64,000 nucleotides of DNA. Source: Bradyrhizobium sp. ORS 285 (GTDB lineage: Bacteria; Pseudomonadota; Alphaproteobacteria; Rhizobiales; Xanthobacteraceae). This document shows, in pieces, positions 6,053-23,055 of the stretch (position 1 is the stretch's first letter; each line of letters starts with the position of its first letter). Location of the stretch: the NCBI RefSeq assembly GCF_900176205.1, contig NZ_LT859959.1, positions 2,563,001 through 2,627,000 of the forward strand, read 5' to 3'. Both the position numbers and the translations under genes were made by a program. Below the pieces are notes generated by a model. It saw only the letters and a list, made by a program, of their open reading frames with translations. It was not told the DNA's origin and made no database searches.

Positions 6053-6943
6053 CTACTTGTACTCCCGCTCGTCCCACCACGGGAAATAGTCCGGCATGTC
6101 GGCCGTCACCGTGTTCTTGAATTGCGCCGGTCGCTTTTCCAGGAATGACACCACGCCTTCCTTGACGTCATCGGAGCGTCCGCGTGCGTAGATGCCGCGG
6201 CTGTCGACCTTGTGCGCTTCCATCGGATCGTCGGCGCCCATCATGCGCCACATCATCTGGCGGATCAGCGCGACCGACACCGGCGCGGTCTTGTCGGCGA
6301 TCTCGCGCGCCAGCGCGCGCGCGGTCGGCAGCAGTTCATCCGGCGGCACCACCTTGCTGACGAGACGTCCGGCGAGCGCCTCCTGCGCCGGGAACACGCG
6401 GCCGGTGTAGCACCATTCCAGCGCCTGCGAGATGCCGACGATGCGCGGCAGGAACCAGCTCGACGCCGCCTCCGGCACGATGCCGCGCTGGGAGAACACG
6501 AAGCCGAACCGCGCCGCCTCTGACGCGATGCGGATGTCCATTGCGAGTTGCATCGTCACGCCGATGCCGACGGCAGGGCCGTTCACCGCGGCGATGACCG
6601 GCTTGAGCGACTTGAAGATGCGCAGCGTCACCTGGCCGCCCCCGTCTCGCACCTGCGGATCGGAGTAATCGACGCGGCCATCGGCATGCCGCTTTACCGG
6701 CCCGCGCTTGGCATCGCGGTCGAACGTGTCGGCGCCCGAGGAGAGATCCGCGCCCGCGCAGAACGCGCGGCCCGATCCGGTGACGATGATCGCCCTGACG
6801 CCATCATCCTTGTCAGCGCGATCGAAGGCGTCGATCAACTCTTCCATCATCGTGCCGGTGAAGGCGTTGAGCTTCTCCGGCCGGTTCAACGTGATGGTGA
6901 GGATCTTGTCGGCGACGTCGTAGAGGATGGTCTGATAGGTCAT
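6053..6943 (-). CDS. Enoyl-CoA hydratase/isomerase (crotonase) family protein
   Basis: The 296-residue protein has the crotonase fold with ITLNRPEKLNAF at the N-terminus, the oxyanion loop GRAFCAGADLSSG, NGPAVGIGVTMQLAMD and the catalytic helix segment GIVPEAASSWFLPRIVG. Family members hydrate or isomerise acyl-CoA thioesters in fatty-acid or aromatic acid degradation. Start at MTYQTILYD is chosen because GGAAAC sits upstream and the longer frame runs through a dispersed repeat. It is the last gene of the minus-strand run that begins with the ABC permeases, but a 249-bp repeat-bearing gap separates it from the amidase, so co-transcription is uncertain. Confidence 0.87.
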   Translation of the reverse strand: MTYQTILYDVADKILTITLNRPEKLNAFTGTMMEELIDAFDRADKDDGVRAIIVTGSGRAFCAGADLSSGADTFDRDAKRGPVKRHADGRVDYSDPQVRDGGGQVTLRIFKSLKPVIAAVNGPAVGIGVTMQLAMDIRIASEAARFGFVFSQRGIVPEAASSWFLPRIVGISQALEWCYTGRVFPAQEALAGRLVSKVVPPDELLPTARALAREIADKTAPVSVALIRQMMWRMMGADDPMEAHKVDSRGIYARGRSDDVKEGVVSFLEKRPAQFKNTVTADMPDYFPWWDEREYK

Positions 6944-7048
6944 GAGAGTTTCCTGATGTGTTGTTGTTCTCATTGTTAGAAACGTCATTCCTCGTCGATG
7001 CGCAAGCATCGAACCGCGCCATGCAGCAAGGAGAGCGGCGGGTATTCC

Positions 7049-7185
7049 GTAGGGTGGGCAAAGGCGCCGGGCGCAACGCGCGCGGCGACGTGCCCACCGT
7101 CTCCACGGATGGTGCGGCGGTGGGCACGCGCCATCAAGAGCGGTGCGCGTCGATGGCGCGGTGGGCGCGCCTTTGCCCACCCTAC
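7049..7185. repeat. Nested inverted repeat, family A (copy 1)
   Basis: The outer arms are GTAGGGTGGGCAAAG and CTTTGCCCACCCTAC; inner arms include GTGCCCACC and GGTGGGCAC. It fills most of the gap between the crotonase and amidase genes. Confidence 0.85.
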
Positions 7186-7192
7186 AGTCCGG

Positions 7193-8614
7193 TCACTTGG
7201 CCGGCGGCATCGGCCACGGGCGCTGCTCGCCGCGCAGTCCCTCGAACGTCTTCGCCATGCCGAGCACGCCGACATCGTCGAAGCGGCGGCCGACGATTTG
7301 GAGGCCGATCGGGAAGCCGTCGGAATCATAGCCGGCGTTGACTGATATCGCCGGGTTCTCCGACATGTTCCACGGCACGGTGTAGGTGATGTGCTCGAAC
7401 GGCTTCTCGGGATCGTTGACCGGCGAGGCGAACTCTGCCGGGAATTTCACGCCCGGCGAGACCGGCGAGATGATGTAGTCGAATTCGGTGAACAGTTTTG
7501 CCGCCGCGGCGCGCAGCGCCATCGTGACATTGAATCCACGAACCACTTCCACGCCCGACAGCGCCGCGCCGCGCTCCGCCCATTGCAGGATGTAGGGCAG
7601 GGTTTTCGCGCGCACTTCAGGCGCGAGCCGGACGAGATCGTCCCACAGCCGCGCGCGCCAAAAATTGTCGAGGCCGTCGAGCATCTCGCGGGTGAGAAAG
7701 CCTTTCGTCTCGGTCACGACAGCACCGGCCTCCTCGAAAGCCTTGGCGGCTGCCAGCGTCGTCGCGCGCACCGGCTCCTCCAGCGCCTGGCCGACGCCGC
7801 CGAGATCGAGCATCAGGCCGATGCGCAGCTTGCGCACCGGTTTCTCCGCGATCTTCCAGTGCAGGTCCGACGGCGGCAGGGCGGTGCCGTCGCGGCGGTC
7901 CGGCTTCGACAGCACGCTCATCATCAGCGCGGCATCGTCGACGATGCGCGTCATGGGGCCGGCGACACGGCCGACATAGGGCGGGTCGATCGGCACGCGA
8001 CCGAAGCTCGGCTTGAGGCCAACCAGGCCGCACCACGACGCTGGCAGCCGGATCGAGCCGCCGATATCGGTGCCGACATGCAGCGGGCCATAGCCGGCAG
8101 CCGCCGCGGCGCCCGCACCGGCGCTGGAGCCGCCGGGGTTCATGCGCAGATCCCAGGGATTGCGCGTCAAAGGATGAAAGCTCGACAGGCCCGACGACAG
8201 CATGCCGTAGTCCGGCATGGTGGTCTTGGCGAAGATGATCGCGCCGGCCTCGCGCAGCCGCGCCACCGGTGGCGCATCGGCGGCGAGAGGCGCGCGCGTG
8301 ACGCTGGCCGCGCCGAGCGGCATCGGCTGGCCCTTGGTGGCGATATTGTCCTTCACGGTCGCAGGCACGCCGTCGAGCACGCCGGCCGGCTCGTCATTGG
8401 CCCAGCGGTCTGTCGACGCCTTCGCTGCGGCGCGCGCCGCGTCGACGTCGAGCAGATAGAGGGCCTTGATCTCGGGCTCCCACGCCGCGACATGCGCCAG
8501 CACATCGTCCATCACCTCGGATGGCGAGAACTGGCGCGCGCGGTAGCCGGCGATCAGGTCGACGGCTGAGAGATCGTGCAGCGAGGTGACGTCGTCCGAA
8601 ACAGGCTTGTGCAT
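7193..8614 (-). CDS. Amidase (amidase-signature family)
   Basis: The 473-residue protein has the Ser-cisSer-Lys triad motifs of the amidase-signature family: VPATVKDNIATKG carries the Lys, GGSSAGAGAAAAAGYGP is the signature with the cis-Ser, and GTDIGGSIRLPAS carries the nucleophile Ser. The family hydrolyses carboxamides and aryl or peptide amides. It is not GatA: no gatB/gatC lies nearby and the context is a peptide uptake cluster. It follows the M20 amidohydrolase by 66 bp on the same strand, suggesting one operon. The substrate is unknown. Confidence 0.88.
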   Translation of the reverse strand: MHKPVSDDVTSLHDLSAVDLIAGYRARQFSPSEVMDDVLAHVAAWEPEIKALYLLDVDAARAAAKASTDRWANDEPAGVLDGVPATVKDNIATKGQPMPLGAASVTRAPLAADAPPVARLREAGAIIFAKTTMPDYGMLSSGLSSFHPLTRNPWDLRMNPGGSSAGAGAAAAAGYGPLHVGTDIGGSIRLPASWCGLVGLKPSFGRVPIDPPYVGRVAGPMTRIVDDAALMMSVLSKPDRRDGTALPPSDLHWKIAEKPVRKLRIGLMLDLGGVGQALEEPVRATTLAAAKAFEEAGAVVTETKGFLTREMLDGLDNFWRARLWDDLVRLAPEVRAKTLPYILQWAERGAALSGVEVVRGFNVTMALRAAAAKLFTEFDYIISPVSPGVKFPAEFASPVNDPEKPFEHITYTVPWNMSENPAISVNAGYDSDGFPIGLQIVGRRFDDVGVLGMAKTFEGLRGEQRPWPMPPAK

Positions 8615-8680
8615 GCTGGTCCTCCGTCACCGAACTTCGTCGTTATTGCTGCCCCGCTCATTGACCCATGTCAGGCGGCG

Positions 8681-9844
8681 CTAGGCGGCCGCCAGACGCG
8701 TCTCGATGATCCGCGCGAACATGCTGGCGCCGATCGGCAGGATCTTGTCGTCGAGCACGTAAGCAGGATTGTGCACCGGCACCGAGCCGTCATGGCCGAC
8801 CCAGAAATAGGCGCCCGGGATGGTCTGCAGCATGTCCGCAAAGTCCTCGCTGCCCATCTTCGGCGTCGAGCGCGTCAGCACCTTGGACGGCTCGACCACG
8901 GTGCGCGCGACCTCCTCGACGACCTTCGACTGCTCCTCCTGGTTGACCAGGACGCTGAACACGTCGCGGATGTCGACGTCGATCTCGCAATTGAACGCCG
9001 CCGCCATGCCGGCGCAGATCGCGCGCATGCGCTCGCGCACCAGCGCGCGGACGTTGTCCGAAAACGCACGCACGGTGCCGCACAGCCAGGCGTCGCCCGG
9101 AATGACGTTGTAGGCCGATCCGGCATGGATCTGGGTGATCGAGACAACGGCGGCCTGCAGCGGCTCGACGTTGCGGCTGACGATCGTCTGGATCGCCTGC
9201 GCGACGCTGGTCGCGATCACCACCGCGTCCTTGGAGCGCTCGGGCATCGCGCCATGGGCGCCATAGCCGGAGATCTTGATGTCGAAGAAGTCGGCGCCGG
9301 CCATCGCCGGGCCGGGGAGAATCGCGATCTCGCCATGCGCGAGGTCCGGCGCGTTGTGCAGGCCGTACAGCTCGTCGCAGGGAAATTTCTGGAACAGGCC
9401 GTCCTTGATCATCGCCCGCGCGCCGCCGAGGCCTTCCTCGGCCGGCTGGAAGATGAAGTGCACCGTGCCGTCGAAATTGCGGGTCTCGGCGAGATAGCGC
9501 GCGGTGCCGAGCAGCATCGTGGTGTGGCCGTCATGGCCGCAGCCGTGAAAGCGGCCGGGAATGGTCGAGCGCCAGGGGAGGTTGGTGTTCTCCTCCATCG
9601 GCAGCGCGTCCATGTCGGCGCGCAGGCCGATCTTCTTCGTGCCGGCTCCCTTGCCCTTGAGCACGCCGATCACGCCGGTGCCGCCGAGGCCGCGATGCAC
9701 CTCGATGCCCCATTGCGCGAGCTTCTCGGCGACGATGCCGGAGGTGCGCGTCTCCTCGAAGCCGATCTCGGGATGCGCGTGCAAATCGCGGCGGATGGCG
9801 GTGAGTTCGTCGGCGTAGCCTTGGATGCGGTCGATCGTGGGCAT
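8681..9844 (-). CDS. M20 family amidohydrolase (hippurate hydrolase-like)
   Basis: The 387-residue protein has RRDLHAHPEIGFEE at residues about 16-29, HGCGHDGHTTMLLG with the metal-binding His/Asp residues, QPAEEGLGGA with the catalytic Glu pair, and the late His in MGSEDFADML...GHDGSVPVHNP. This is the M20D/IAA-amino-acid hydrolase group, which splits N-acyl amino acids such as hippurate. No signal peptide is seen. Start at MPTIDRIQG is preferred over the longer frame because the extension lies in a dispersed repeat. It sits between the M81 peptidase and the amidase. Confidence 0.9.
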   Translation of the reverse strand: MPTIDRIQGYADELTAIRRDLHAHPEIGFEETRTSGIVAEKLAQWGIEVHRGLGGTGVIGVLKGKGAGTKKIGLRADMDALPMEENTNLPWRSTIPGRFHGCGHDGHTTMLLGTARYLAETRNFDGTVHFIFQPAEEGLGGARAMIKDGLFQKFPCDELYGLHNAPDLAHGEIAILPGPAMAGADFFDIKISGYGAHGAMPERSKDAVVIATSVAQAIQTIVSRNVEPLQAAVVSITQIHAGSAYNVIPGDAWLCGTVRAFSDNVRALVRERMRAICAGMAAAFNCEIDVDIRDVFSVLVNQEEQSKVVEEVARTVVEPSKVLTRSTPKMGSEDFADMLQTIPGAYFWVGHDGSVPVHNPAYVLDDKILPIGASMFARIIETRLAAA

Positions 9845-10056: not shown

Positions 10057-11565
10057 CTAGTCATCCTTGGTTCCAAACGCCGGGCCGTTGGGCTTGAGGC
10101 GGATGCCGGGACGCAGCCGCGCCCAGGGCAGGGTGGAGGGATCGGCTGGCATCGCGCCGGGCGCGGCGCAGATCAGCAGCTGCTCGGCGATCGGCTCGAA
10201 ATCGGCGCGGAAATGCACCGAGCTTTTGTTGACCAGGATCGCCTGCTCGGTCGGCTCGATGCCGACGAAGCGGTACATCTCCTGGTCGGCGAGCTGGGAC
10301 TTGTGCGAGGCGACGACGACACGGACCTCGCCGATGCGCAGGCAGGCCGAGGGGCCCATCTCCATCTTGCGGCCGCCGTAGAACGGGCCAGGCGCTGTAA
10401 AGCGGCCGTCGGAAATCTTCTCGACGATAAAACTCTCCTCGAACGGCGCATCGCCGGGAATGCCGCTCTTGCCGCCGAGCGACAGTGTGACGGTCGCGCC
10501 TTCGCCGGCCGCATGCGCGGCCAGCGCGGCCTGCGGATCGTAGATCATGCCGATCGCCGCACGGCTGGCGCGGTTGCGCACCAGCGCGCGCAGCATGCCG
10601 GTTGTGTCGGAATCGCCGCCGGCGCCCGGGTTGTCCTGCGTGTCGGCGATCACGATCGGGCGCGTCGCACTCTTCGCCAGCGTCATCGCGTGCTGCACGC
10701 CCTCATCCGGCGTGTAGATGCGGCCGTCGAAGTCATCCTCGTGACCGCAGACGATCGCGGCGATGGCATCCGCCGCGGCGTCCGCATCGGCCTGCGTGCG
10801 GCCGTAGGCGAACACGCTGGGGCCGCAATGCACGAAGTCGGCGGCCGGGAATCCGGGCGCAAAGGACAGCGTCGGCACGGCCTCGCTCTGCATCGCCGCG
10901 AGCTTCTCGTAGATGCCCTTGGTCGGCTGGTCGTTGGTGCACTGCCAGCTGATCGGAATAAGGAACGACAGCTGCCGGAACGCCTTGGCCAGCGGCTGCT
11001 TCGTGCTCAGCAGCAGCGCGAGATGCTCGGCGCAGGCGCGGCCGGTGTCGGCCATGTCGGTGTGCGGATATTTGCGATAGGCGATCAGCGCGTCCGCATG
11101 CGCGATCATCTCGGGCGTGACGTTGGCGTGCAGATCGAGGCTCGCGACAAGCGGCACGTCAGTGCCGATCGCCTGGCGCACGCGGGCGAGGATCTCGCCT
11201 TCGCCATCGTCGAAATGCTCAGGCACCATCGCGCCGTGCAGGTCGAGATACACGCCATCGAGCGGAAGGGCCGCCTTGATGCGGTCGACCATCACGGTGG
11301 TGATGCGCTCGAACGCATCCTTGGTGACATGGGCCGAGGGGCTTGCCGCGCAGGCGATGGTCGGCACGATCTCCCAGCCATTGGCTTCGGCAACCGCGAT
11401 GAAGCCCGACTGGCCGGCATTGATGCCGCGCATCGTCGTCATGACGCTCGCAGCGTCGGCGATGGAGGCGCGGCCGCCACCATGCATGAAGTCGTCGTAA
11501 TCCGCTTTCGTCGGTGCGAAGGTGTTGGTTTCGTGGAGGAAGCCGCCGATCGCGACGCGCGTCAT
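10057..11565 (-). CDS. M81 family metallopeptidase (MlrC-like)
   Basis: The 502-residue protein begins with VAIGGFLHETNTFAP, whose His-Glu pair is part of the metal site. It also has YLDLHGAMVPEHF and SLDLHANVTPEM, and a C-terminal half with ADTQDNPGAGGDSDTTGML, the typical MlrC arrangement (N-terminal DUF1485 domain followed by the MlrC C-terminal domain). MlrC of sphingomonads cleaves the linear tetrapeptide made from microcystin; most M81 proteins have unknown substrates. Here it lies in a run with two other amide hydrolases and a peptide-type ABC transporter, which fits peptide or lactam breakdown. ATG at 11565 gives the conserved N-terminus directly. Confidence 0.88.
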   Translation of the reverse strand: MTRVAIGGFLHETNTFAPTKADYDDFMHGGGRASIADAASVMTTMRGINAGQSGFIAVAEANGWEIVPTIACAASPSAHVTKDAFERITTVMVDRIKAALPLDGVYLDLHGAMVPEHFDDGEGEILARVRQAIGTDVPLVASLDLHANVTPEMIAHADALIAYRKYPHTDMADTGRACAEHLALLLSTKQPLAKAFRQLSFLIPISWQCTNDQPTKGIYEKLAAMQSEAVPTLSFAPGFPAADFVHCGPSVFAYGRTQADADAAADAIAAIVCGHEDDFDGRIYTPDEGVQHAMTLAKSATRPIVIADTQDNPGAGGDSDTTGMLRALVRNRASRAAIGMIYDPQAALAAHAAGEGATVTLSLGGKSGIPGDAPFEESFIVEKISDGRFTAPGPFYGGRKMEMGPSACLRIGEVRVVVASHKSQLADQEMYRFVGIEPTEQAILVNKSSVHFRADFEPIAEQLLICAAPGAMPADPSTLPWARLRPGIRLKPNGPAFGTKDD

Positions 11566-11677: not shown

Positions 11678-11815
11678 GTAGGGTGGGCAAAGGCGCAGCC
11701 GCGCTGGCTCCACACGTACGCTCGTGGGTGCCGCCGTGCCCACCGTCTCGCCGCTGAGTCCGCTGCTCGACGGTGGGCACGCTGCCGCCTTCGGCGGCTG
11801 CTTTGCCCACCCTAC
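11678..11815. repeat. Nested inverted repeat, family A (copy 2)
   Basis: GTAGGGTGGGCAAAG starts at 11678 and CTTTGCCCACCCTAC ends at 11815, with inner GTGCCCACC and GGTGGGCAC arms. It separates the M81 gene from the ABC ATPase gene. Confidence 0.88.
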
Positions 11816-11824
11816 ATGACGGCC

Positions 11825-13471
11825 TTACGCCACCGCCTCGGACACCGGGCGGAAGTTCGCAAAGTCCCAGTTCCGGCCGGGGGCGGCTTCGAGCAAGGAC
11901 TTGGTGTAGGCCTCCTTCGGGTGCGTCAGGATCTCGCCGGCCGGGCCCTGCTCGACGATGCGGCCCTTCTGCATCACCACGACCTCGTCGCAGATCTGCG
12001 CGGCGACGCGCAGGTCGTGCGTGATGAACAGGATCGCGATGCCGAGGCGGCGCTGGATCTCGTCGAGCAGCTCCAGCACCTGCGCCTGCACGGAGACGTC
12101 GAGCGCGGACACCGCTTCGTCGGCCACCAGCACGTCCGGATCGAGCGCGAGGGCGCGCGCGATCGCGATACGCTGGCGCTGGCCGCCGGAGAACTGGTGC
12201 GGATAGCGCGAGATCGCATCCGCCGGCAGGCCGACCAGCTCGAGCAGTTCGCGCGCCCGCGCCATGGCCTTGTCGGTAGACGTGCCGTAGTTGACCGGGC
12301 CCTCGGCGATGCTCTCGCCGACCGTGAGCCGGGGATTCAGCGAGCGGTAGGGGTCCTGGAACACGATCTGGATGCGCTTGCGGTGCGGCTGCAGCAGCCG
12401 GCGCGTCAGGATCGAGATCTCGTGGCCGGCGAGGCGGACGCCGCCGGAGGTCGGATCGATCAGGCGAACGATGCAGCGCGCCACCGTCGACTTGCCCGAG
12501 CCGCTCTCGCCGACGATGCCGAGCGTGCGGCCCTTGCGCAAGGTGAGCGTGACGTTCTGGGCGGCGACGACCTCGCGCGGTTTGCCGAGGAAGGAGCGCT
12601 CGCGATAGACCTTGCCGAGCTCGTTGGTCTCCAACACCACCGGCTCGGTGCTGTCTGGCCGCGGCGGCCGCGGGATCAGGCTCGGCACCGAGGCGAGCAA
12701 ATTGCGCGTATAGTCCATCTCCGGCTTGCGCAGGATCTTGTCGAGCGCGCCGGTCTCGACCAGGCGGCCCTGGCGCATCACCGCGACGCGGTCGGCGATC
12801 TCGGCGACGACGCCCATGTCGTGGGTGATGAACAGCACCGCGGTGCCGTGATCGCGCTGCAACTCGCGGATCAAGGAGAGAATCTGCTTCTGCGTGGTGA
12901 CGTCGAGCGCGGTGGTCGGCTCGTCGGCGATCAAGAGCTTGGGCTCGAGCACCAGCGCCATCGCGATCATGATGCGCTGGCGCTGGCCGCCGGACAGGCG
13001 GTGCGGGTAGGAGCCGAAGATGCGCTCGACGTCCGGCAGGTGGACCTGCTCCATCATGTCGAGGATGCGCTTGCGCCGCGCGCGACCGTCGAGCGAGGTA
13101 TGCGCGCGCAAGACTTCGTCGATCTGGCGGCCGACCGGCACGACCGGATTGAGTGCGGTCATCGGCTCCTGGAAGATCATCGCCATCCGCGTGGCGCGCA
13201 GCTCGCGCAGGCGGCGATCGCTCGCGGTCAGCAGCTCCTCGCCGACCAGCTTGACGCTGCCGCCGACAGCATGCAGCGCGTTCTTCGGCAACAGGCCCAT
13301 GGTGGTCAGCGACGTCACGGACTTGCCGGAGCCGCTCTCGCCGACGACGCACAGCGTCTCGCCCTTCTCGACCTTGATCGAGACGCCGTCGATGATGCGC
13401 GGGCCGTTCGGGTTCTTGGTCTTGCCGACGGTGACGACGAGATTGTCGATGTCGAGGATGGTGTCAGTCAT
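11825..13471 (-). CDS. Dipeptide/oligopeptide-type ABC transporter, fused double ATP-binding protein
   Basis: The 548-residue protein contains two complete ATPase domains, equivalent to fused DppD and DppF. Domain 1 (about 1-260) has Walker A GESGSGKS, signature LSGGQRQRI and Walker B LLIADEPTTALD. Domain 2 (about 280-535) has GESGSGKST, FSGGQRQRIAIARAL and VLVADEAVSALD, where Ala replaces the usual Pro. The domains power the neighbouring permeases. It lies 112 bp downstream of the DppC-type gene with a family B repeat between them. Confidence 0.93.
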   Translation of the reverse strand: MTDTILDIDNLVVTVGKTKNPNGPRIIDGVSIKVEKGETLCVVGESGSGKSVTSLTTMGLLPKNALHAVGGSVKLVGEELLTASDRRLRELRATRMAMIFQEPMTALNPVVPVGRQIDEVLRAHTSLDGRARRKRILDMMEQVHLPDVERIFGSYPHRLSGGQRQRIMIAMALVLEPKLLIADEPTTALDVTTQKQILSLIRELQRDHGTAVLFITHDMGVVAEIADRVAVMRQGRLVETGALDKILRKPEMDYTRNLLASVPSLIPRPPRPDSTEPVVLETNELGKVYRERSFLGKPREVVAAQNVTLTLRKGRTLGIVGESGSGKSTVARCIVRLIDPTSGGVRLAGHEISILTRRLLQPHRKRIQIVFQDPYRSLNPRLTVGESIAEGPVNYGTSTDKAMARARELLELVGLPADAISRYPHQFSGGQRQRIAIARALALDPDVLVADEAVSALDVSVQAQVLELLDEIQRRLGIAILFITHDLRVAAQICDEVVVMQKGRIVEQGPAGEILTHPKEAYTKSLLEAAPGRNWDFANFRPVSEAVA

Positions 13472-13583: not shown

Positions 13584-14474
13584 TCACTTGCCGGCCTCGC
13601 GCTGCTTCATGCGCGGGTCGAGCGCGTCACGGGCGGCGTCGCCGATCAGGTTGATCGAGAGGATCGCGATCGACAGCAAGAGGCCCGGCCAGAAGATCAG
13701 CGACGGCTTGATTTGGAAGTAAGAGCGGCCCTCGGCCATGATGTTGCCCCAGGTCGGCGTCTCCGGGCTGATGCCGGCGCCGAGGAAGGACAGGATCGCC
13801 TCGGTGAGGATGGCGGCAGCACAGATGTAGGTGCCCTGGACGATCAGCGGCGCAATCGTGTTCGGCATCAGATGCCGCCACATGATCTTGGGCATCGAGG
13901 TGCCCAGCGAAATCGCGGCTTCGACATAGGGCTCCTCGCGCGCGGTCAGGACGACCGAGCGGACCAGCCGCCCGACGCGCGGAATTTCGACGATGGTGAT
14001 CGCGATCATCACCGTGATGACGCTGGCGCCGGACAGCGAGACCACGGCGATGGCGAGGAGGATGCTCGGGATCGCCATCAGGCCGTCCATCACGCGCATC
14101 ATGATGGCGTCGACCCAGCGGAAGAAACCGGAGACCAGGCCGATGACGAGGCCGATCGCGATTGAAATCGCAGCGGCACCGACACCGATGAGGAGCGAAA
14201 TGCGGCCGCCATAGATGGTGCGCGACAACAGGTCGCGGCCATAGGCGTCGGTGCCGAGCAGGAATTGCGCGCTGGCCGGCTTGAGCCGCTGCGCCGGCGC
14301 CAGCAGCACTGGATCATGCGGCGCCAGCAGCGGCGCCAGCACCGACATGATCACGATCAGCGCCAGGCAAACTGTGGCCACGGCGATGATCGGGGTGGAC
14401 GTGAGAAAGCCGAAGCGGGGCCCCAGTCGCGTGGTGACTGGAATCGACGGCTCAGGAGTGGTGACGATTGCCAT
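13584..14474 (-). CDS. Peptide-type ABC transporter permease (DppC/OppC-like)
   Basis: The 296-residue inner-membrane protein has one N-terminal transmembrane helix (about residues 30-52), the OppC-type N-domain segment HDPVLLAPAQRLKPASAQFLLGTD in the periplasm (quoted in part), and about five further helices. The ATPase-coupling EAA loop reads EEPYVEAAISLGTSMPKI. Start at MAIVTTPEPS lies 14 bp after the DppB-type stop, so the two permeases are translationally close. The longer frame to 15068 is a shadow of DppB. Confidence 0.92.
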   Translation of the reverse strand: MAIVTTPEPSIPVTTRLGPRFGFLTSTPIIAVATVCLALIVIMSVLAPLLAPHDPVLLAPAQRLKPASAQFLLGTDAYGRDLLSRTIYGGRISLLIGVGAAAISIAIGLVIGLVSGFFRWVDAIMMRVMDGLMAIPSILLAIAVVSLSGASVITVMIAITIVEIPRVGRLVRSVVLTAREEPYVEAAISLGTSMPKIMWRHLMPNTIAPLIVQGTYICAAAILTEAILSFLGAGISPETPTWGNIMAEGRSYFQIKPSLIFWPGLLLSIAILSINLIGDAARDALDPRMKQREAGK

Positions 14475-14488: not shown

Positions 14489-15430
14489 TTAGTAGCGGAT
14501 GCGGGGATCGAGGATCGTGTAGGCGAGGTCGATCAGCAGATTGACCGCGAGGTAGATGAACGATGTCAGCAGGATCATGCCCTGGATGACCGGATAGTCG
14601 CGCGCCAGCACGGCATCGACCGTGAGCCGCCCGATGCCCGGCAGGTTGAACACGCTCTCGGTGACGACGACGCCGGAGATGAGAAGCGCGAAGCCGGAGC
14701 CGATCACGGTGATGACAGGGACTGCCGCATTGCGCAGCGCGTGGCGCAACAGCACCGCGACCTCGCTGACGCCCTTGGCGCGCGCGGTACGTACGAAATC
14801 CTCGCCGAGCACGTCGAGCATGGCGGCGCGCGTCATGCGCGCGATCAGCGCGACGTAGATGAAGGACAGCGCGCAGGTCGGCAGGATGATGCGCTCGAAG
14901 AACGGCCCGAAACCGACGCTGAGACTCTTGAAGCCCTGCACGGGCACCCAGCGCAGATTGATCGCGAACACCTGGATCAGGATGTAGCCGATCACGAAAA
15001 CCGGCACCGAGAAGCCGAGCACCGACAGCGCCATCACGAAGCGATCGATCCAGGTACCGTGCTTCCACGCTGCGATCACGCCGAGCGGGACGGCGACGAG
15101 AATCGACAGGATGATCGTCGACAGTGCGACCGAGATCGACGGCTCGATGCGCTGGCCGATCATCTGCAGCACCGGCACCTTGGAGATCAGCGATACGCCG
15201 AGATCGCCGTGAACGAGCTGATTGATCCAGGTGAAGAATTGGATGTAGAGCGGCTCGTTCAATCCGAGCGTGGTGCGGATGCGCTCGAGCTGCTCGGGCG
15301 TGGCATTATCGCCGGCGAGAATCGCCGCGGGGTCGCCGGGTGTCAGCCGCAGCAGCAGGAAGACGAACAACGCCACCACGCCCATCACCGGGATGGATGC
15401 GAGGATGCGGCGAAACAGATAACCGATCAT
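14489..15430 (-). CDS. Peptide-type ABC transporter permease (DppB/OppB-like)
   Basis: The 313-residue protein has the invariant start MIGYLFRRILASIPVMG, a six-helix pattern and the EAA loop DFVRTARAKGVSE. It pairs with the downstream DppC-type subunit to form the channel. It is the first gene of the minus-strand transporter operon. The divergent region to 15913 should hold its promoter. No solute-binding gene lies in this operon; three candidates are encoded from 17319 onward on the opposite strand. Confidence 0.93.
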   Translation of the reverse strand: MIGYLFRRILASIPVMGVVALFVFLLLRLTPGDPAAILAGDNATPEQLERIRTTLGLNEPLYIQFFTWINQLVHGDLGVSLISKVPVLQMIGQRIEPSISVALSTIILSILVAVPLGVIAAWKHGTWIDRFVMALSVLGFSVPVFVIGYILIQVFAINLRWVPVQGFKSLSVGFGPFFERIILPTCALSFIYVALIARMTRAAMLDVLGEDFVRTARAKGVSEVAVLLRHALRNAAVPVITVIGSGFALLISGVVVTESVFNLPGIGRLTVDAVLARDYPVIQGMILLTSFIYLAVNLLIDLAYTILDPRIRY

Positions 15431-15762: not shown

Positions 15763-15892
15763 GTAGGGTGGGCAAAGGCGCGGCCCGTGCTGCCTCACAC
15801 GAACCAGATCGCGGTTGCGCCGTGCCCACCAGCTTCCAAGCGTCCGAAGGTGGGCACGCTGCCGCCTGCGGCGGCTGCTCTGCCCACCCTAC
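15763..15892. repeat. Nested inverted repeat, family A (copy 3)
   Basis: GTAGGGTGGGCAAAG starts at 15763 and the inverse CTGCCCACCCTAC ends at 15892, with the inner GTGCCCACC and GGTGGGCAC arms. It is downstream of the M20 carboxypeptidase gene. Confidence 0.85.
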
Positions 15893-15913: not shown

Positions 15914-17044
15914 CTACGCCAGGGTCGCAAGCAGACCCGCCATCAGCCGGCCTCTCTCTGCGAGGCTGTCGATCTCGATATACTCGTTGAGAGTGTGCAT
16001 GTCGGCGCCGCGGACGCCGAGGCCGTCGAGAGTGGGAATGCCGAGCGCGCCGGTGAAATTGCCGTCGGAGCCGCCGCCCGCCGAGCCGTGGGGCAGGGAC
16101 ATGCCGAGGTCTGCGGCAATGCGGCGCGCGGTCTCGTACAGCGCCATGGTTCCGGAATCCGGCTCCCACACCGGCCGCGTCACGCCGCGTGTCACGTTGA
16201 AGGCGACGTCGTCGGTGGTGCCGGACAGCGCGAGCATGCGTTCGACGCCGCGGTCGAGATCGGCCTGACGCTTGGCCATGCTGAGCGCTTCGCCGGTGCA
16301 CGTCGTTGCGACGCAATTCACCCATTGGCCGCCATGGACGATGCCAACCGAGAAGGTGCAGTCGTCCGTGGTCATCGCATCGATGGCGAGGATCTGCCGC
16401 GCCATTTCCCGGATTGCGGAACGACCTGCCGCGAGCCGTGCGCCGGCATGGCTGGGACGTCCGGTCGCTTCGAGATTGAAGCGCGCGATGGCATAGCGGC
16501 CGGTGACGACGCCATTGTCCGGACGGCCCGGCTCGGGCACCAGCACGTATTTGTTGCGCCGCGCTTCGGCCTCGATGATGTCGCGGGTCGAGGGCGTGCC
16601 GACCTCTTCGTCGGGCGTGAACAGCACGGTGATCGGCAGCGGCGTCGTGACGCAGGCCTTGATCAGCTGCCGGATCGCTTCCAGCGAGAGATAGTTGCCG
16701 CCCTTCATGTCGCAGATGCCGGGGCCGTGACACCGGCCGCCGTCGCGGCGCCACGGCAGCTTGGCCAGCGTTCCGACAGGATGGACCGTGTCCATGTGGC
16801 CGGCGATCAGGATGCCGGGCTCGCCCTGGCGCGGATGCGGGAAGCGGGCGCGCACGCAGCCCGCAAAGCCCTGCCGACCGGCGATGCGCTCGATCGTCGC
16901 ACCCGAGATCGCCATGTCGCGCGCGGCGAGGTCGAGCATGCGCTCCACGGCACCAGCGTCCCAGGTCGGACTCTCGCATTCCACCCAGCCGCGCAGGCCC
17001 TGCAGCATGGCTTCGGTATCGAAGGGAAGATCGGCTGGGTTCAT
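15914..17044 (-). CDS. M20 family metallopeptidase (CPG2/ArgE-type carboxypeptidase)
   Basis: The 376-residue protein has AGHMDTVHPVGT with the metal-binding His and catalytic Asp, GPGICDMKGG with the bridging Asp, TPDEEVGTPSTR with the catalytic Glu pair, and GSAGGGSDGNF and ADMHTLNEYIEID with the C-terminal His. This is the glutamate carboxypeptidase/acetylornithine deacetylase group, acting on N-acyl or C-terminal residues. ATG at 17044 (MNPADLPF) is preferred to the upstream TTG because GAAGAGAG precedes it. It is divergent from the first solute-binding gene, sharing a 274-bp intergenic region, so co-regulation is likely. Confidence 0.9.
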   Translation of the reverse strand: MNPADLPFDTEAMLQGLRGWVECESPTWDAGAVERMLDLAARDMAISGATIERIAGRQGFAGCVRARFPHPRQGEPGILIAGHMDTVHPVGTLAKLPWRRDGGRCHGPGICDMKGGNYLSLEAIRQLIKACVTTPLPITVLFTPDEEVGTPSTRDIIEAEARRNKYVLVPEPGRPDNGVVTGRYAIARFNLEATGRPSHAGARLAAGRSAIREMARQILAIDAMTTDDCTFSVGIVHGGQWVNCVATTCTGEALSMAKRQADLDRGVERMLALSGTTDDVAFNVTRGVTRPVWEPDSGTMALYETARRIAADLGMSLPHGSAGGGSDGNFTGALGIPTLDGLGVRGADMHTLNEYIEIDSLAERGRLMAGLLATLA

Positions 17045-17173
17045 GTGTGCTCTCTTCAAGGCCTGATCGTTACTCTCGTGTCACGAGACGATAGTCGCGC
17101 GCGGTTTGTAAAGCGAAAGCTGTGCAAGCGTTAACGGCGATCTGAGGCGTAAGCGGCATGCACTGAATGCGGA

Positions 17174-17318: not shown

Positions 17319-18932
17319 ATGTTCCACATCCCGCGCTGGAAAGGTCTGACGCTCGCCACGAGCCTCGCCGTTTCCATGCTTTCGCTTTCCACGGCGCTGA
17401 GCACCCAGGCCATGGCTGCCGGCAAGAAGACGATCACGGCGGTGATGCATTCGGACCTGCGCGTCATCGATCCAGGCTTCACCACGGCCTACATCACCCG
17501 CGACCATGGCTACATGGTTTACGACACCCTGCTGGCGACCGATTCGAGCTTCAAGGTCCAGCCGCAGATGGCGGACTGGAAGGTGTCGGACGACAAGCTG
17601 ACCTACACCTTCACCTTGCGCGACGGCCTGAAGTGGCACGACGGCACGCCGGTGACCGCCGAGGACTGCGTCGCGTCGCTGAAGCGCTGGGGCCGCAATG
17701 ACGGCATGGGCCAGAAGCTGATGGACTTCACGGCGAGCCTGGAGGCGCAGGACGCCAAGACGATCGTGCTCAAGTTGAAGGAGCCCTACGGCCTCGTCCT
17801 GGAGTCGATCGCCAAGCCGTCCTCGCTGGTGCCGTTCATGATGCCGAAGCGTCTTGCGGAGACGCCGCAGGGCCAGCAGATCCCCGAGCAGATCGGTTCG
17901 GGCCCGTTCAAGTTTGTGAAGAGCGAATTCCAGCCGGGCGTGAAGGCGGTGTATGAGAAGAACACCGACTACGTGCCGCGCAAGGAGCCGGCGAGCTGGA
18001 CCTCGGGTGGCAAGGTCGTGAAGGTCGATCGCGTCGAGTGGATCACCATGCCTGACGCGCAGACCGCAGTGAACGCGCTGCAGTCGGGCGACATCGACTT
18101 CATGGAGAACCTTCCCTACGACATGCTGTCGGTGCTGGAGTCGAGCCCCGAGCTCAAGATCGATGTCTTGAACAAGTTCGGCTACCAGACGCTCGGCCGC
18201 ATGAACTTCCTGAACCCGCCCTTCGATAACGTGAAGGTGCGCCGCGCGGCGTTCCTGGCGCTGAACCAGAAGGACGTGCTCGATGCGCTGGTCGGCAATC
18301 CGAAGTACCAGAAGGTCTGCGGCGCGGTGTTCGTGTGCGGCACCCCGCTCGAGACCGACGTCGGCGCCCAGACGCTGATCAAGGGCAACGGCATGGCGGA
18401 GGCGAAGAAGGCGCTCGCCGAGTCCGGCTATGACGGCACGCCGATCGCGATCATGGCGCCCGGCGACGTGACCACGTTGAAGGCGCAGCCGGTCGTCTCG
18501 GCGCAGCTGCTGCGCGAGGCCGGCTTCAAGGTCGACCTGCAGGCGACCGACTGGCAGACCGTGGTGACCCGCCGCGCCAGCCAGAAGCCGGTGAAGGAGG
18601 GCGGCTGGAACATGTTCTTCACCAACTGGGTCGGCGCCGACGTCGCCAATCCCGTCGTGAACGTGTCGGTCGGCGGCCGCGGCACCAAGGGCGGCTGGTT
18701 CGGCTGGGCCGAGGACGCCGAGATCGAGAAGCTGCGCGACGCCTATGCCCGCTCGGCCTCTCCGGAGGAGCAGAAGAAGATCGCCACCGAGATCCAGAAG
18801 CTGAACTACGAGAAGGTGATCTACATCCCGCTCGGCCAGTACCTGCTGCCGAGCGGCTGGCGCAAGTCGCTGACCGGCGTGCTCGACGGTCCGGCGACGC
18901 CGGTGTTCTGGAACATCGACAAGAGCGAATAA
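17319..18932 (+). CDS. ABC transporter substrate-binding protein, family 5 (paralogue 1 of 3)
   Basis: The 537-residue protein has a Sec signal peptide (residues 1 to about 35, ending TQAMAAG) and the DppA/OppA-type periplasmic fold. Recognisable parts are ITRDHGYMVYDTLLATD near the N-terminus, LRDGLKWHDGTPVTAEDCV and the late NKFGYQTLGRMNF and VRRAAFLALNQKDV segments typical of family 5 receptors. GGAGACT lies before ATG. The gene is transcribed away from the carboxypeptidase and ends in a strong terminator at 18966. By hand count it differs from paralogue 2 at roughly 37 positions over about 505 mature residues. It probably feeds the permease pair at 13584-15430, since no other permease is close. 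Confidence 0.93.
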   Translation: MFHIPRWKGLTLATSLAVSMLSLSTALSTQAMAAGKKTITAVMHSDLRVIDPGFTTAYITRDHGYMVYDTLLATDSSFKVQPQMADWKVSDDKLTYTFTLRDGLKWHDGTPVTAEDCVASLKRWGRNDGMGQKLMDFTASLEAQDAKTIVLKLKEPYGLVLESIAKPSSLVPFMMPKRLAETPQGQQIPEQIGSGPFKFVKSEFQPGVKAVYEKNTDYVPRKEPASWTSGGKVVKVDRVEWITMPDAQTAVNALQSGDIDFMENLPYDMLSVLESSPELKIDVLNKFGYQTLGRMNFLNPPFDNVKVRRAAFLALNQKDVLDALVGNPKYQKVCGAVFVCGTPLETDVGAQTLIKGNGMAEAKKALAESGYDGTPIAIMAPGDVTTLKAQPVVSAQLLREAGFKVDLQATDWQTVVTRRASQKPVKEGGWNMFFTNWVGADVANPVVNVSVGGRGTKGGWFGWAEDAEIEKLRDAYARSASPEEQKKIATEIQKLNYEKVIYIPLGQYLLPSGWRKSLTGVLDGPATPVFWNIDKSE

Positions 18933-18965
18933 GTCACGCCGGGTTCAAGCCGGCAAAGCGATCAG

Positions 18966-18994
18966 GCGGCGGAGGCAACTCCGCCGCTTTTTTT
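18966..18994 (+). terminator. Rho-independent terminator of the first solute-binding gene
   Basis: A 9-bp perfect stem (GCGGCGGAG/CTCCGCCGC) with GCAA loop is followed by seven T residues, 33 bp after the stop codon. It ends transcription before paralogue 2, which therefore has its own promoter. Confidence 0.92.
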
Positions 18995-19020: not shown

Positions 19021-19150
19021 GTCGGGTGGCCAAAGCAGCCGCCGCAGCGCGCCCACGGTCGGGCGGCATGCTCGGCGGAGAGATGGTGGGCACGGCGCCT
19101 CAACACGTTTGCCCGTACAAATAGCACCACCGCGGCTTTGCCTACCCTAC
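19021..19150. repeat. Nested inverted repeat, family A (copy 4, degenerate)
   Basis: GTCGGGTGGCCAAAG at 19021 and GGCTTTGCCTACCCTAC ending at 19150 are diverged outer arms; the inner GGTGGGCAC is kept. It occupies the gap between solute-binding paralogues 1 and 2. Confidence 0.7.
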
Positions 19151-19208: not shown

Positions 19209-19237
19209 TTGACGGGCGCTGCAACTGTTGCAAGTCT
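19209..19237 (+). promoter_or_regulatory. Candidate promoter/conserved upstream block of the second solute-binding gene
   Basis: TTGACG at 19209, a 17-bp spacer containing the odd palindrome GCAACTGTTGC (19221-19231), and AAGTCT as candidate -10. The same order and spacing occur before paralogue 3. The start codon is 120 bp further on. Confidence 0.5.
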
Positions 19238-19356
19238 TTCGCCCGCGGAATGAACGCTGGGCGAAGACCCTGAACGCGATGGTGCTGCTCCCAGCGGTCA
19301 CCGTGTCTCGATTACGCCCGAGGCCGTCGTTCACCCGTCACGTCAAGAGAGCTCGC

Positions 19357-20970: not shown

Positions 20971-21304
20971 TCGGCCGTCATCCGGGACGTCGACCTGGGC
21001 GCGGCGAGCGCATCATCGTCGCGCTCTTTCGCTCGCTCGGCCGACTGCCGTCAGCAATGCGTATCGCGGACGGCTTCCAGCCCATCGACCATCAATGGTG
21101 GCCTGAGTTGATCCTGCGACAGCTTCTTGCTTGCATGGATCGGCGCGGCGGCTGGGGTCTTGCACTGTGGTTGGGCGGCTGTTTCGGTCGGCATTGGCAT
21201 GCTCCCTGGTCGCGCTGCTAACGGGCGAGGACGTTGCCAGTTCCAGGAGTCGGCACCGGGGGCGGACTGCGCATGAGGCGACGGTTGCCATGCGTCGGTG
21301 CCGA
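20971..21304. other. Leader region before the third solute-binding gene, no gene recognised
   Basis: About 330 bp with short frames on both strands that show no family resemblance. The region differs from the leader of paralogue 2 except for the conserved block starting at 21305. Confidence 0.45.
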
Positions 21305-21333
21305 TTGACGCGCAGTGGAACTGCTGCAAGTCT
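21305..21333 (+). promoter_or_regulatory. Candidate promoter/conserved upstream block of the third solute-binding gene
   Basis: TTGACG at 21305, a 17-bp spacer with GGAACTGCTGC and AAGTCT at 21328 repeat the arrangement at 19209-19237. The start codon is about 112 bp downstream. Confidence 0.5.
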
Positions 21334-21444
21334 GCATTCCGCAAGCTTGTTTGCTCCGCGCATCTGAGGTGCGCGGCATGGCGGCTTGCCGGCCTTGATT
21401 GCGATCGGGACCGTCGGATGAAAGCTCACATCAAGAGATATTGC

Positions 21445-23055
21445 ATGTCACATCCTTTGCGGCGGACCTCATCCGCGCTGGTGTCCTGCCTGATTGCTGC
21501 GGCGATGGCCATGTCGCTCGGTGCAACACCCAAGGCGTTTGCCGCTGGCAAGAAGACGATCACGGCGGTGATGCATTCCGATCTGCGCGTGATCGATCCG
21601 GTGTTCACGCCCGCCTACATCACCCGCGATCATGGTTACATGGTCTATGACACGCTGCTCGGGACCGACGCCAAGTTTCAGGTCCAGCCGCAGATGGCGG
21701 AGTGGAAGGTCTCCGACGACAAGCTGAGCTACACCTTCACCCTGCGCGACGGCCTGAAGTGGCACGATGGCTCCCCAGTGACCGCCGAGGACTGCGTCGC
21801 CTCGCTGAAGCGCTGGAGCCGCAACGACAGCATGGGCCAGAAGCTCATGGAGGCCACGGCCTCGCTCGAGGCCACCGATGCAAAAACGATCACTCTGAAG
21901 CTGAAGGAGCCGTACGGCCTAGTGCTGGAGTCGATCGGCAAGCCGTCCTCCTACGTGCCGTTCATGATGCCGAAGCGTCTCGCCGAGACGCCTGCGAATG
22001 CGCAGATCTCGGAGCAGATCGGATCGGGCCCATTCAAATTCGTCAAGGCTGAATTCCAGCCGGGCGTGAAGGCGGTCTACGAGAAGAACACCGACTACGT
22101 GCCGCGCAAGGAGCCGCCGAGCTGGACCGCTGGCGGCAAGGTGGTGAAGGTCGATCGTGTCGAGTGGATCTCGATGCCGGACGCGCAGACCGCGGTCAAC
22201 GCCCTGCAATCCGGCGACATCGACTTCATGGAGTTTCCGCCGCTCGACCTCGAGCCGGTGCTGTCCGCCAGTCCCGACCTGACGATGAACGTGCTGAACA
22301 AGTTCGGCTACCAGACCTTGGGCCGGATGAACTTCCTGTTTCCGCCGTTCGACAATGTGAAGATCCGCCGCGCGGCCTTCCTGGCGCTGAACCAGAAGGA
22401 CGTGCTCGACGCGCTCACGGGCAACCCCAAATACTACACGATCTGCGGCGCCGTGTTCGGCTGCGGCACGCCGCTGGAAAGCGACGTCGGCTCGGAGACG
22501 CTGGTGAAGGGCAACGGCATGGAGCAGGCCAAGAAGCTGCTCGCCGAGTCCGGCTATGACGGCACGCCGGTGGTGATCCTGGCGCCGGGCGACGCGATCA
22601 CGCTGAAGGCGCAGCCGGTCGTCGCCGCGCAGCTGCTGCGCTCCGCCGGCTTCAAGGTCGACCTGCAGACGACGGATTGGCAGACCGTGGTGACGCGGCG
22701 CGCCAGCCAGAAGCCGCCGAAGGAGGGCGGCTGGAACATGTTCTTCACCAATTCGGTGATCGCAGACTCGGGCAATCCGATTGGCAGCACCTTCGTCGGC
22801 GCGCGTGGTCAGAAGAGCCCGTTCGGCTGGCCCGACGATCCGAAGATGGAGGAGCTGCGCGACGCCTTCGCGAAGGCCGGAACGCCAGAGGATCAGAAGC
22901 GCATCGCTGGCGAGATCCAGAAGGAAATCTATGACCAGGTGATCTACGTGCCGCTCGGCCAATGGTTCATGCCGAGCGCCTGGCGCAAGTCCATCACCGG
23001 CGTGCTGGAAGGGCAGGCGGTACCGGTGTTCTGGAACGTCGACAAGAGCGAGTAG
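21445..23055 (+). CDS. ABC transporter substrate-binding protein, family 5 (paralogue 3 of 3)
   Basis: The 536-residue protein has its own signal peptide (to about TPKAFAAG) and then follows paralogues 1 and 2 closely. It is more diverged: the 262-285 patch reads EFPPLDLEPVLSASPDLTMN, and the segment after NMFFTN reads SVIADSGNPIGSTFVGARG instead of WVGADVANPVVNVSVGGRG. The C-terminal portion (FGWPDDPKMEELRDAFAKAG) is also distinct. Start at MSHPLRR is chosen for the signal peptide. The pattern suggests an older duplication than that of paralogues 1 and 2 and a shifted ligand range. Confidence 0.92.
   Translation: MSHPLRRTSSALVSCLIAAAMAMSLGATPKAFAAGKKTITAVMHSDLRVIDPVFTPAYITRDHGYMVYDTLLGTDAKFQVQPQMAEWKVSDDKLSYTFTLRDGLKWHDGSPVTAEDCVASLKRWSRNDSMGQKLMEATASLEATDAKTITLKLKEPYGLVLESIGKPSSYVPFMMPKRLAETPANAQISEQIGSGPFKFVKAEFQPGVKAVYEKNTDYVPRKEPPSWTAGGKVVKVDRVEWISMPDAQTAVNALQSGDIDFMEFPPLDLEPVLSASPDLTMNVLNKFGYQTLGRMNFLFPPFDNVKIRRAAFLALNQKDVLDALTGNPKYYTICGAVFGCGTPLESDVGSETLVKGNGMEQAKKLLAESGYDGTPVVILAPGDAITLKAQPVVAAQLLRSAGFKVDLQTTDWQTVVTRRASQKPPKEGGWNMFFTNSVIADSGNPIGSTFVGARGQKSPFGWPDDPKMEELRDAFAKAGTPEDQKRIAGEIQKEIYDQVIYVPLGQWFMPSAWRKSITGVLEGQAVPVFWNVDKSE

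What the first reader, a model, noticed from the sequence alone, without database searches (positions are those of the whole stretch)
6053..23055. Peptide/amide scavenging island: four hydrolase families, one ABC transporter, three tandem receptors
The minus strand encodes DppB, DppC and fused DppDF-type subunits, then an M81 (MlrC-like) peptidase, an M20 amidohydrolase, an amidase and a crotonase. An M20 carboxypeptidase is divergent to three tandem family 5 receptors. Each hydrolase attacks a different kind of amide bond. This suggests stepwise breakdown of a blocked, cyclic or N-acylated peptide-like compound after import. No such island with three receptors sharing one permease pair is known to me, though parts occur in other genomes.
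Basis: partly seen in the sequence, partly recalled or inferred. Interest (0 to 1): 0.75.

Follow-up and report, generated by a model that had tools for sequence, protein, structure and literature searches.

The report
Peptide uptake cluster with diversified receptors
A soil bacterium that lives with legumes carries a gene cluster that appears to import short, unusual peptides with one pump fed by three near-copy receptors and then break them down; the cluster is widespread rather than unique, but its receptors seem to have changed mainly where they touch their cargo.

Summary
The genome is apparently a Bradyrhizobium close to BTAi1. One strand encodes M20b (carboxypeptidase G2-like), DppB, DppC, fused DppDF, M81, an M20 aminoacylase, an amidase and a crotonase; the other encodes three family 5 receptors. 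The island is not unique: of 80 related loci 67 keep the order, 9 keep the hydrolases with another transporter, 4 are contig fragments. The core also lies on Agrobacterium, Nitratireductor, Paracoccus and Sulfitobacter plasmids. Tandem receptor triplets have a precedent (Borrelia OppA1-3).

New here: (1) In 12 of 67 native loci a D-amino acid dehydrogenase sits inside the cluster; D-serine ammonia-lyase adjoins M81 on two plasmids, so D-residue peptides are a better substrate guess than microcystin. (2) S1 and S2 differ by five fixed residues; two align with OppA ligand residues, and that loop stays different although gene conversion homogenised the copies in 3 of 5 genomes. (3) Each receptor has its own copy of a conserved upstream element. 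(4) Hairpin-rich dispersed repeats lie in the gaps, so a single operon is doubtful.

Substrate and function are inferred. Novelty: new variant of a known kind.

The parts
15914..17059 (-). M20b: M20/M25/M40 metallo-hydrolase, carboxypeptidase G2-like, divergent to the receptors
   Evidence: PF01546+PF07687; NF005678 771 bits over cut-off 386; best PDB match 1cg2 carboxypeptidase G2
14489..15430 (-). DppB-type permease
   Evidence: PF00528 and PF19300; Opp2B 322 bits, below its equivalog cut-off of 350
13584..14474 (-). DppC-type permease (ORF opens at 15068; start placed at the Met of MAIVTTPEPS)
   Evidence: PF00528 at residues 306-488 of the long ORF; start
11825..13471 (-). fused DppD-DppF ATPase
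   Evidence: two ABC_tran stretches plus oligo_HPY; NCBIfam matches in both halves
10057..11565 (-). M81 (MlrC-like) metallopeptidase; predicted metal ligands Asp144, His146, His168
   Evidence: PF07364 and PF07171; aligned to 3iuu and 7ylq; motif positions
8681..9844 (-). M20a: M20 aminoacylase-type amidohydrolase (ORF opens at 9943; start placed at the Met of MPTIDRI)
   Evidence: TIGR01891 382 bits over cut-off 154; PDB 1ysj YxeP and 1xmb ILL2; start
7193..8614 (-). amidase-signature hydrolase
   Evidence: PF01425; PRK07042 794 bits over cut-off 458
6053..6943 (-). crotonase / enoyl-CoA hydratase; present in 63 of 67 native loci, operon membership uncertain
   Evidence: PRK08260 524 bits over cut-off 320
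17319..18932 (+). S1, family 5 receptor, proximal; ligand loop FMENLPYDML at 18099-18128
   Evidence: PF00496 244 bits; loop
19357..20970 (+). S2, family 5 receptor (ORF opens at 19228); ligand loop FMEAPPYELL at 20137-20166
   Evidence: PF00496
21445..23055 (+). S3, family 5 receptor (ORF opens at 21298; ATG at 21418 or 21445); ligand loop FMEFPPLDLE at 22225-22254
   Evidence: PF00496
17174..17201 (+). promoter-like element of S1, TTGACG-N14-TGCAACTG (two mismatches)
   Evidence: the same element before 68 of 68 proximal receptors in relatives, 61 strict and 7 loose
19209..19236 (+). promoter-like element of S2, TTGACG-N14-TGCAAGTC (exact)
   Evidence: one of only two exact matches in the 7.8 Mb genome
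21305..21332 (+). promoter-like element of S3, TTGACG-N14-TGCAAGTC (exact)
   Evidence: the other exact match
18964..18989 (+). terminator-like hairpin after S1 (11 pairs, then a T run)
   Evidence: as a class, terminator-like sites are not enriched here (10 found, 7.5 expected)

Best explanation
This is a chromosomal uptake-and-breakdown cluster for short, non-standard peptides or peptide-like amides. Three periplasmic receptors capture different members of one compound class and hand them to one DppBC-DppDF pump. In the cytoplasm, M81 cleaves the amide bond at an unusual residue, M20b removes a C-terminal acidic or other amino acid, M20a removes an N-acyl group and the amidase hydrolyses a leftover amide. 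The compounds probably contain D-amino acids or other non-protein residues, because some relatives keep a D-amino acid dehydrogenase or D-serine ammonia-lyase in the cluster. The receptors arose by tandem duplication of gene plus promoter and diverged with a focus on ligand-contact loops. Shown: gene content, conserved order, transporter swap, loop-focused divergence, gene conversion in three genomes, copies of the upstream element. Inferred: ligands, order of hydrolysis, D-residue specificity, sharing of one pump, that the element is a promoter.
For: Families and motifs. Order kept in 67 of 80 loci. In 9 of 80 loci the transporter is replaced by a cassette (receptor 49-51%, DppB 63-65%, DppDF 59-60% identical) in the opposite orientation while the hydrolases stay; none of the 9 genomes has the native receptor elsewhere. 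D-amino acid dehydrogenase (L046 protein: NF009074, 722 bits over cut-off 494; the other 11 are 79-97% identical to it) between M20b and dppB in 12 of 67 native loci, 6 changes on a hydrolase tree of 69 rows; in 12 genomes searched, copies of 80% identity or more occur only at this locus. D-serine ammonia-lyase beside M81 on two plasmids. S1-S2: five fixed differences in five genomes, at 229, 230, 234, 351 and 501; 229 and 230 align with OppA 246 and 247, listed as ligand residues. Gene conversion p 0.0002-0.0004 in 3 of 5 genomes. Codons 226-240: pN 0.16-0.26 against 0.02-0.05 elsewhere. S1-S3: 16 of 56 fixed differences in two pocket segments. Fold search finds peptide, opine, sialic acid and nickel receptors.
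Against: The D-amino acid genes are absent from this window, and the D-amino acid dehydrogenase gave no match in its genome at E 1e-30, so the D-residue link comes from relatives only; 55 of 67 native loci lack it. M81 orthologs are not tied to the transporter everywhere: 0 of 60 stretches fetched from other orders of the class (some cut by contig ends) show the permeases. The ligand loop is also more variable than average among 53 single-copy orthologs (entropy 0.76 against 0.37), so divergence there is partly general; weighting by that variability leaves P 0.0006 for S1-S2 but only 0.058 for the independent duplication. pN/pS in the loop stays below 1 in all five comparisons (0.99 in G002). 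The window genome itself and G001 show no significant conversion (p 0.23 and 0.71). The fused ATPase passes nickel and staphylopine-transporter cut-offs (NikD, NikE, CntD, CntF). Gaps with hairpin repeats argue against one operon. S1 model pLDDT is only 66, with most of the second pocket segment under 50.
Confidence: 0.5

Rival explanations
1. Ordinary scavenging of L-di- and oligopeptides: a Dpp-type pump with housekeeping peptidases, without D-residue or acyl specialisation; the receptors broaden the range.
For: Permeases and ATPase score as general Opp/Dpp/Gsi members, the ATPase over the PRK11308 dipeptide-transporter cut-off (501 against 408); the fold search returns DppA and OppA; 25 family 5 receptor matches exist in this genome.
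Against: M81, M20 aminoacylase and amidase are not standard L-dipeptidases (family knowledge); D-amino acid dehydrogenase or D-serine ammonia-lyase in relatives.
Confidence: 0.25
2. Uptake and breakdown of an opine, metallophore, nickel complex or other amino acid conjugate rather than a peptide.
For: Among the top PDB folds are AgaA with agropinic acid, MoaA with mannopinic acid, NikA and CntA; nickel receptor models are among the best NCBIfam matches of S1 and S3; DppB comes near the Opp2B nickel permease cut-off (322 against 350) and the fused ATPase passes NikD, NikE, CntD and CntF cut-offs (two domains add up in one score); M20a is like IAA-amino acid hydrolase ILL2.
Against: Receptor scores are far below cut-off (S1 NikA 114 against 393; S2 was not scanned with NCBIfam); the hydrolase set is much larger than an opine or metal needs (inference).
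Confidence: 0.15
3. The three receptors are redundant copies kept for dosage; loop differences are drift at a variable site.
For: S1 and S2 differ at only five fixed residues; the loop is variable in single-copy orthologs too; pN/pS is below 1.
Against: The loop remains different in all five genomes while other parts are homogenised in three of them; S1, S2 and S3 form separate groups; S3 is changed in two pocket segments and has Ser in place of Trp402.
Confidence: 0.25
4. Degradation of microcystin-like cyclic peptides.
For: M81 is the MlrC family.
Against: MlrC model 160 bits against cut-off 999; sequence match to microcystinase 7ylq weaker than to 3iuu; M81 is widespread and often lacks this transporter nearby. 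MlrA and MlrB were not searched for in the genome.
Confidence: 0.03

Closest known systems
Borrelia burgdorferi Opp system (OppA1-OppA3 tandem receptors, OppBC, OppDF)
   Same: Three tandemly encoded family 5 receptors for a peptide pump; the paper reports that receptor variability is highest in the ligand-binding region (passages of PMC5736914).
   Different: There the receptors are lipid-modified, five in all, with two permease pairs; no amide-hydrolase set is described in the passages seen. Here the hydrolases are in the cluster and a shared upstream element precedes each receptor.
E. coli Dpp / Opp / Gsi transporters
   Same: Receptor plus two permeases plus two ATPase domains; GsiB and OppA align with S1; 1uqw (YliB, now GsiB by recall) is the second-best PDB entry.
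   Different: ATPase fused as DppDF; hydrolases attached; equivalog cut-offs missed by S1, S3 and both permeases, while the fused ATPase passes several cut-offs.
MlrABCD microcystin cluster
   Same: M81 metallopeptidase with the same metal motif.
   Different: MlrD is an MFS transporter and MlrA and MlrB are other enzymes (passages of PMC12474180); the genes of this island include none of them.
Unnamed SBP-B-C-DF-M81-M20-M20 clusters on plasmids of Nitratireductor, Agrobacterium, Paracoccus, Sulfitobacter, Paroceanicella and Haematobacter
   Same: Same core genes, 52-76% identical in the five measured; Haematobacter by annotation.
   Different: One receptor; M81 comes first in 4 of these 6; an IclR-type regulator beside M81 in 4 of 6; amidase not seen or only 27% identical (Agrobacterium); a penicillin acylase follows in Haematobacter.

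Membership tests
Peptide/opine/nickel (family 5, PepT) ABC importer | family 5 receptor, two BPD permeases, two ABC ATPase domains | tested here: met
Peptide/opine/nickel (family 5, PepT) ABC importer | imports a peptide | not testable with these tools
   no binding or transport data; family members bind peptides, opines and metals
Equivalog Dpp, Opp, Gsi or Nik system | score over the curated equivalog cut-off for receptor and permeases | tested here: not met
   Opp2B 322 against 350, Opp4C 262 against 350, GsiB 114 against 594 (S1); S2 not scanned
Equivalog Dpp, Opp, Gsi or Nik system | score over the curated cut-off for the ATPase | tested here: inconclusive
   NikD 460 against 319, NikE 426 against 333, CntF 445 against 385, PRK11308 501 against 408 passed; GsiA, DppF, OppD missed; a two-domain protein sums two matches
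M81 peptidase | DUF1485 plus MlrC_C domains and Asp-x-His ... His metal motif | tested here: met
   the metal ligands of 3iuu are given in PMC4810221
Microcystinase MlrC | score over NF041767 cut-off (999) | tested here: not met
   160 bits
M20 aminoacylase (TIGR01891) | score over cut-off and intact Cys-Gly-His metal motif | tested here: met
   382 against 153.75 bits; motif visible
D-peptide catabolic system | D-amino acid enzyme in the cluster | tested here: inconclusive
   not found in the window's gap or its genome at E 1e-30; present in 12 of 67 native relatives
Tandem-receptor (multi-SBP) importer | several receptors use one permease | not testable with these tools
   only one permease pair lies at the locus; interaction not tested

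The most novel reading that the evidence does not exclude
A dedicated import-and-hydrolysis system for D-residue peptides, in which M81 enzymes act as D-residue-tolerant amidohydrolases and a receptor array is kept functionally distinct by selection on a ten-residue ligand loop against ongoing gene conversion; the whole transporter can be exchanged for another while the hydrolytic core stays.
Probability: 0.25. Interest if true: 0.62.

Novelty: new variant of a known kind. Interest (0 to 1): 0.42.

Why it matters
M81 enzymes are common, but literature on them is thin in the library held: one search lists six papers, and the two of which I saw passages give a substrate for MlrC alone. A conserved neighbourhood with D-amino acid enzymes in some lineages would give the family a testable general role. 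The S1/S2 pair, nearly identical outside a few residues, is a natural loop-swap experiment for how cluster C receptors change specificity. The locus may also help explain how Bradyrhizobium uses unusual nitrogen compounds in soil or nodules.

Tried and rejected
Microcystin or cyclic peptide breakdown: rejected on the MlrC cut-off. A chance neighbourhood: rejected by 67 of 80 conserved loci. A known structured RNA in receptor leaders: Rfam gives only the tRNA in the window. M81 context in other orders of the class: 60 stretches examined, no permeases; the recurrent neighbours that I printed looked like housekeeping genes (an IlvD-like and aminoacyl-tRNA synthetase sequences, recognised from memory and by no search), uninformative. 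A remnant of the D-amino acid dehydrogenase in the window: none in the M20b-dppB gap (its only weak hit lies at 29236-29322). A genome-wide regulon of the receptor element: only two exact sites, both here, so no regulon can be read from it. Papers: nine searches listed no paper whose title or shown abstract start describes this cluster; subscription papers are missing. The predicted S1 structure (pLDDT 66) was used only for the strand-loop-helix around residues 261-274 and for the fold search.

Weak points kept in view: the two pocket segments (226-235 and 400-425) were chosen by alignment with OppA after the differences had been seen; the gene-conversion test is a simple run-length permutation of my own; trees are quick ones. 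Rows dropped: 21 SBP fragments under 430 residues, and identical rows; alternative-transporter loci and three short contigs; L031 and L046 distal copies (incomplete). In one search two short contigs without visible transporter were counted as native (3 changes); without them it is 2 changes. Only the 80 best of 126 M81 loci were kept by the tool.
Full report
What is there. The window lies in a 7.8 Mb single-contig genome, unnamed, whose closest relatives at this locus are Bradyrhizobium SRS-191, B. aeschynomenes, STM 3809, SSBR45G and BTAi1, at 92-97% identity in M81; that these form the photosynthetic clade is recalled. On the minus strand, read right to left, lie M20b, dppB, dppC, fused dppDF, M81, M20a, an amidase and a crotonase; on the plus strand lie receptors S1, S2 and S3. 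M81 keeps the metal motif of solved homologs: Asp144, His146 and His168 align with the 3iuu zinc ligands Asp138, His140 and His162 named in PMC4810221 (passages; alignment, whose chain numbering runs one higher). M20a is closest to YxeP and the plant IAA-amino acid hydrolase ILL2, M20b to carboxypeptidase G2, and the amidase to general amidase-signature enzymes. The crotonase is not an amide hydrolase, so three amide-hydrolase families are present, M20 twice.

How common it is. The tool found 126 M81 loci and kept the best 80. Of these 80, 67 have the complete order receptor | M20b-B-C-DF-M81-M20a-amidase with no order violation; the crotonase follows in 63 of these 67; 9 have another transporter; 4 are contig fragments. 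Nearly all are Bradyrhizobium. In a sample of 297 genomes of the order, 39 have M81 at E 1e-100 or better. I fetched 20 of the 38 other than the window's own (none of the 8 of the same genus; some cut by contig ends): by my count, 15 show both permeases and the ATPase at 50% identity or more, and 11 show both M20 enzymes. In the class sample, 80 of 385 genomes match at E 1e-120, but 0 of the 60 stretches that I fetched show the permeases. On plasmids 313 records match. I opened 15 regions, of which one bore no annotation. By annotation, eleven of the other 14 have receptor, two permeases and ATPase next to M81; six of these also list both M20 enzymes. In the Agrobacterium plasmid the order is receptor-B-C-DF-M81-M20-M20-amidase. 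The island is therefore a widespread unit, and the claim of uniqueness fails.

Transporter swap. In 9 of 80 loci the hydrolases are 64-90% identical to the window's, but the transporter is a divergent cassette (receptor 49-51%, DppB 63-65%, DppDF 59-60% identical) in the opposite orientation at the same place. None of the 9 genomes has the native receptor: the best match in each is the cassette receptor itself, and the next are 38-44% identical. The swap needs 2 changes on a tree of the hydrolases (79 rows; 3 when two short contigs are counted as native). Related cassettes stand beside more distant M81 genes in the order sample (L182, L184, L186). A hydrolytic core that keeps a peptide-type transporter beside it even when the transporter changes is the best evidence that the two work together.

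D-amino acid link. In 12 of the 67 native loci a gene lies between M20b and dppB on the same strand. The L046 copy is a D-amino acid dehydrogenase (NF009074, 722 bits over a cut-off of 494); the other 11 are 79-97% identical to it. It comes or goes 6 times on the hydrolase tree (69 rows). In 12 genomes searched, 3 of them carrying it here, copies of 80% identity or more are found only at this locus; others of 33-70% occur elsewhere. Four loci have an ArgE/DapE deacylase in the same gap, three of them together with the dehydrogenase (the L067 protein was the one scanned). On the Diaphorobacter plasmid a D-serine ammonia-lyase precedes a related transporter and M81, and on a Mesorhizobium plasmid one lies next to M81 beside another transporter; both pass the PRK02991 cut-off, the second just misses TIGR02035 (364 against 368). 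MlrC, the characterised M81 enzyme, cuts the Adda-Glu bond (passages of PMC12474180 and PMC4810221; that this Glu is a D-residue is recalled). I infer that the substrates include D-residues. Against it: the dehydrogenase was not found in the window's genome, and 55 of 67 native loci lack it.

Receptors. Three complete tandem copies are present in 4 of 5 clade relatives; in the fifth, one complete copy and fragments at contig ends. S1, S2 and S3 form separate groups (SH-aLRT 85, 99 and 100). A second, independent duplication occurred in the B. japonicum group (8 distal rows, support 100). S1 and S2 differ at five fixed residues in five genomes: 229, 230, 234, 351 and 501. Positions 229 and 230 align with OppA 246 and 247; Asn246 and Asn247 are among 13 ligand residues of Yersinia OppA (figure legend passage in PMC7442780, and passage in PMC9967938). 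Two of five in such a set has hypergeometric P 0.006. In G002, G004 and G005 the pattern of S1-S2 differences shows gene conversion (p 0.0002-0.0004), in the window and G001 not (p 0.23 and 0.71). The 25-codon window from 226 has the most differences in 4 of 5 genomes and is tied third in G002. pN in codons 226-240 is 0.16-0.26 against 0.02-0.05 elsewhere, with pN/pS below 1 (0.99 in G002). S1-S3: 16 of 56 fixed differences fall in 36 residues of two segments aligned with OppA pocket regions (P 1e-7 uniform; 4e-4 weighted by variability in single-copy orthologs), including Trp402 to Ser at the place of OppA Trp416. In the independent duplication 6 of 25 fixed differences fall there (P 0.006 uniform; 0.058 weighted). 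The loop is variable among 53 single-copy orthologs as well. I read this as diversified specificity, not proven positive selection. The predicted S1 model places the loop between strand 261-263 and helix 267-274, while most of the second segment has pLDDT under 50; it matches family 5 receptors, best 8vdx of Bordetella bronchiseptica, then 1uqw (YliB) and AgaA.

Expression units. An element TTGACG-N14-TGCAAGTC lies 148 nt before the S2 start and 140 nt before the S3 start (ATG at 21445), and with two mismatches 145 nt before S1. Its exact form occurs twice in the genome, at S2 and S3. It precedes 68 of 68 proximal receptors in relatives (61 strict, 7 loose; 71 loci looked at, 3 without a receptor on the contig); 10 of 10 distal copies of the B. 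japonicum group lack it, so those are probably co-transcribed with the proximal copy. A terminator-like hairpin follows S1. The minus-strand gaps at 7049-7185, 11678-11815 and 15763-15892 hold a dispersed repeat of about 130-140 nt with strong predicted RNA folding (z -5.55 to -7.55), so one long transcript should not be assumed.

Comparison. Works like: Dpp/Opp import coupled to intracellular hydrolysis, with multiple receptors as in Borrelia (three tandem receptors on the chromosome and two on plasmids, two permease pairs, one ATPase pair; passages of PMC5736914). Membership: it is a family 5 ABC importer. S1, S3 and both permeases miss the equivalog cut-offs of Dpp, Opp, Gsi and Nik, whereas the fused ATPase passes several, nickel and staphylopine ones included, so a metal or opine substrate is not excluded. 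Its M81 is not an MlrC equivalog. Novelty: new variant of a known kind. Nine literature searches listed no paper that, by title and shown abstract start, describes the cluster; of five papers I saw passages only.

Noticed in passing
window 7049-7185, 11678-11815, 15763-15892, 19021-19150, 31868-32004, 52070-52211, 59908-60043: A dispersed repeat of about 130-140 nt bounded by inverted arms GTAGGGTGGGCAAAG, with strong multi-hairpin folding in three of the four copies folded (z -5.55 to -7.55; the fourth -1.29). The exact 15-mer occurs 239 times in the genome (122 forward, 117 reverse). Arms (15 bases, one position A or G) are found in 24 of 80 related loci, among them L001 and L003 but not L002, L004 or L005.
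   Followed up: partly
L014, L016, L022, L034, L061, L066, L069, L070, L073: The whole transporter is exchanged for a divergent cassette in opposite orientation while the hydrolases remain.
   Followed up: yes
L033, L067, L074, L075 between M20b and dppB: An ArgE/DapE family deacylase (PRK06837 for the L067 copy) inserted in the cluster, a third M20 enzyme.
   Followed up: partly
L162, L166, L168, L174-L181, L286, L287, L289: An IclR-type regulator lies next to M81 in 14 non-Bradyrhizobium loci (48-100% identity to the query, its own locus included; one more hit at 31% in L164); 0 of the 80 loci L001-L080 gave a hit at E 1e-25.
   Followed up: partly
window 23234-24637, minus strand: A soluble chemoreceptor with a zinc-binding CZB domain adjoins S3; a 72% identical copy lies near the receptor in L010. 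A link to the receptors was not tested.
   Followed up: no
L171 (same family, other genus): Two tandem receptors at 76% and 74% identity to S1, with crotonase but no amidase detected in the fetched stretch.
   Followed up: no
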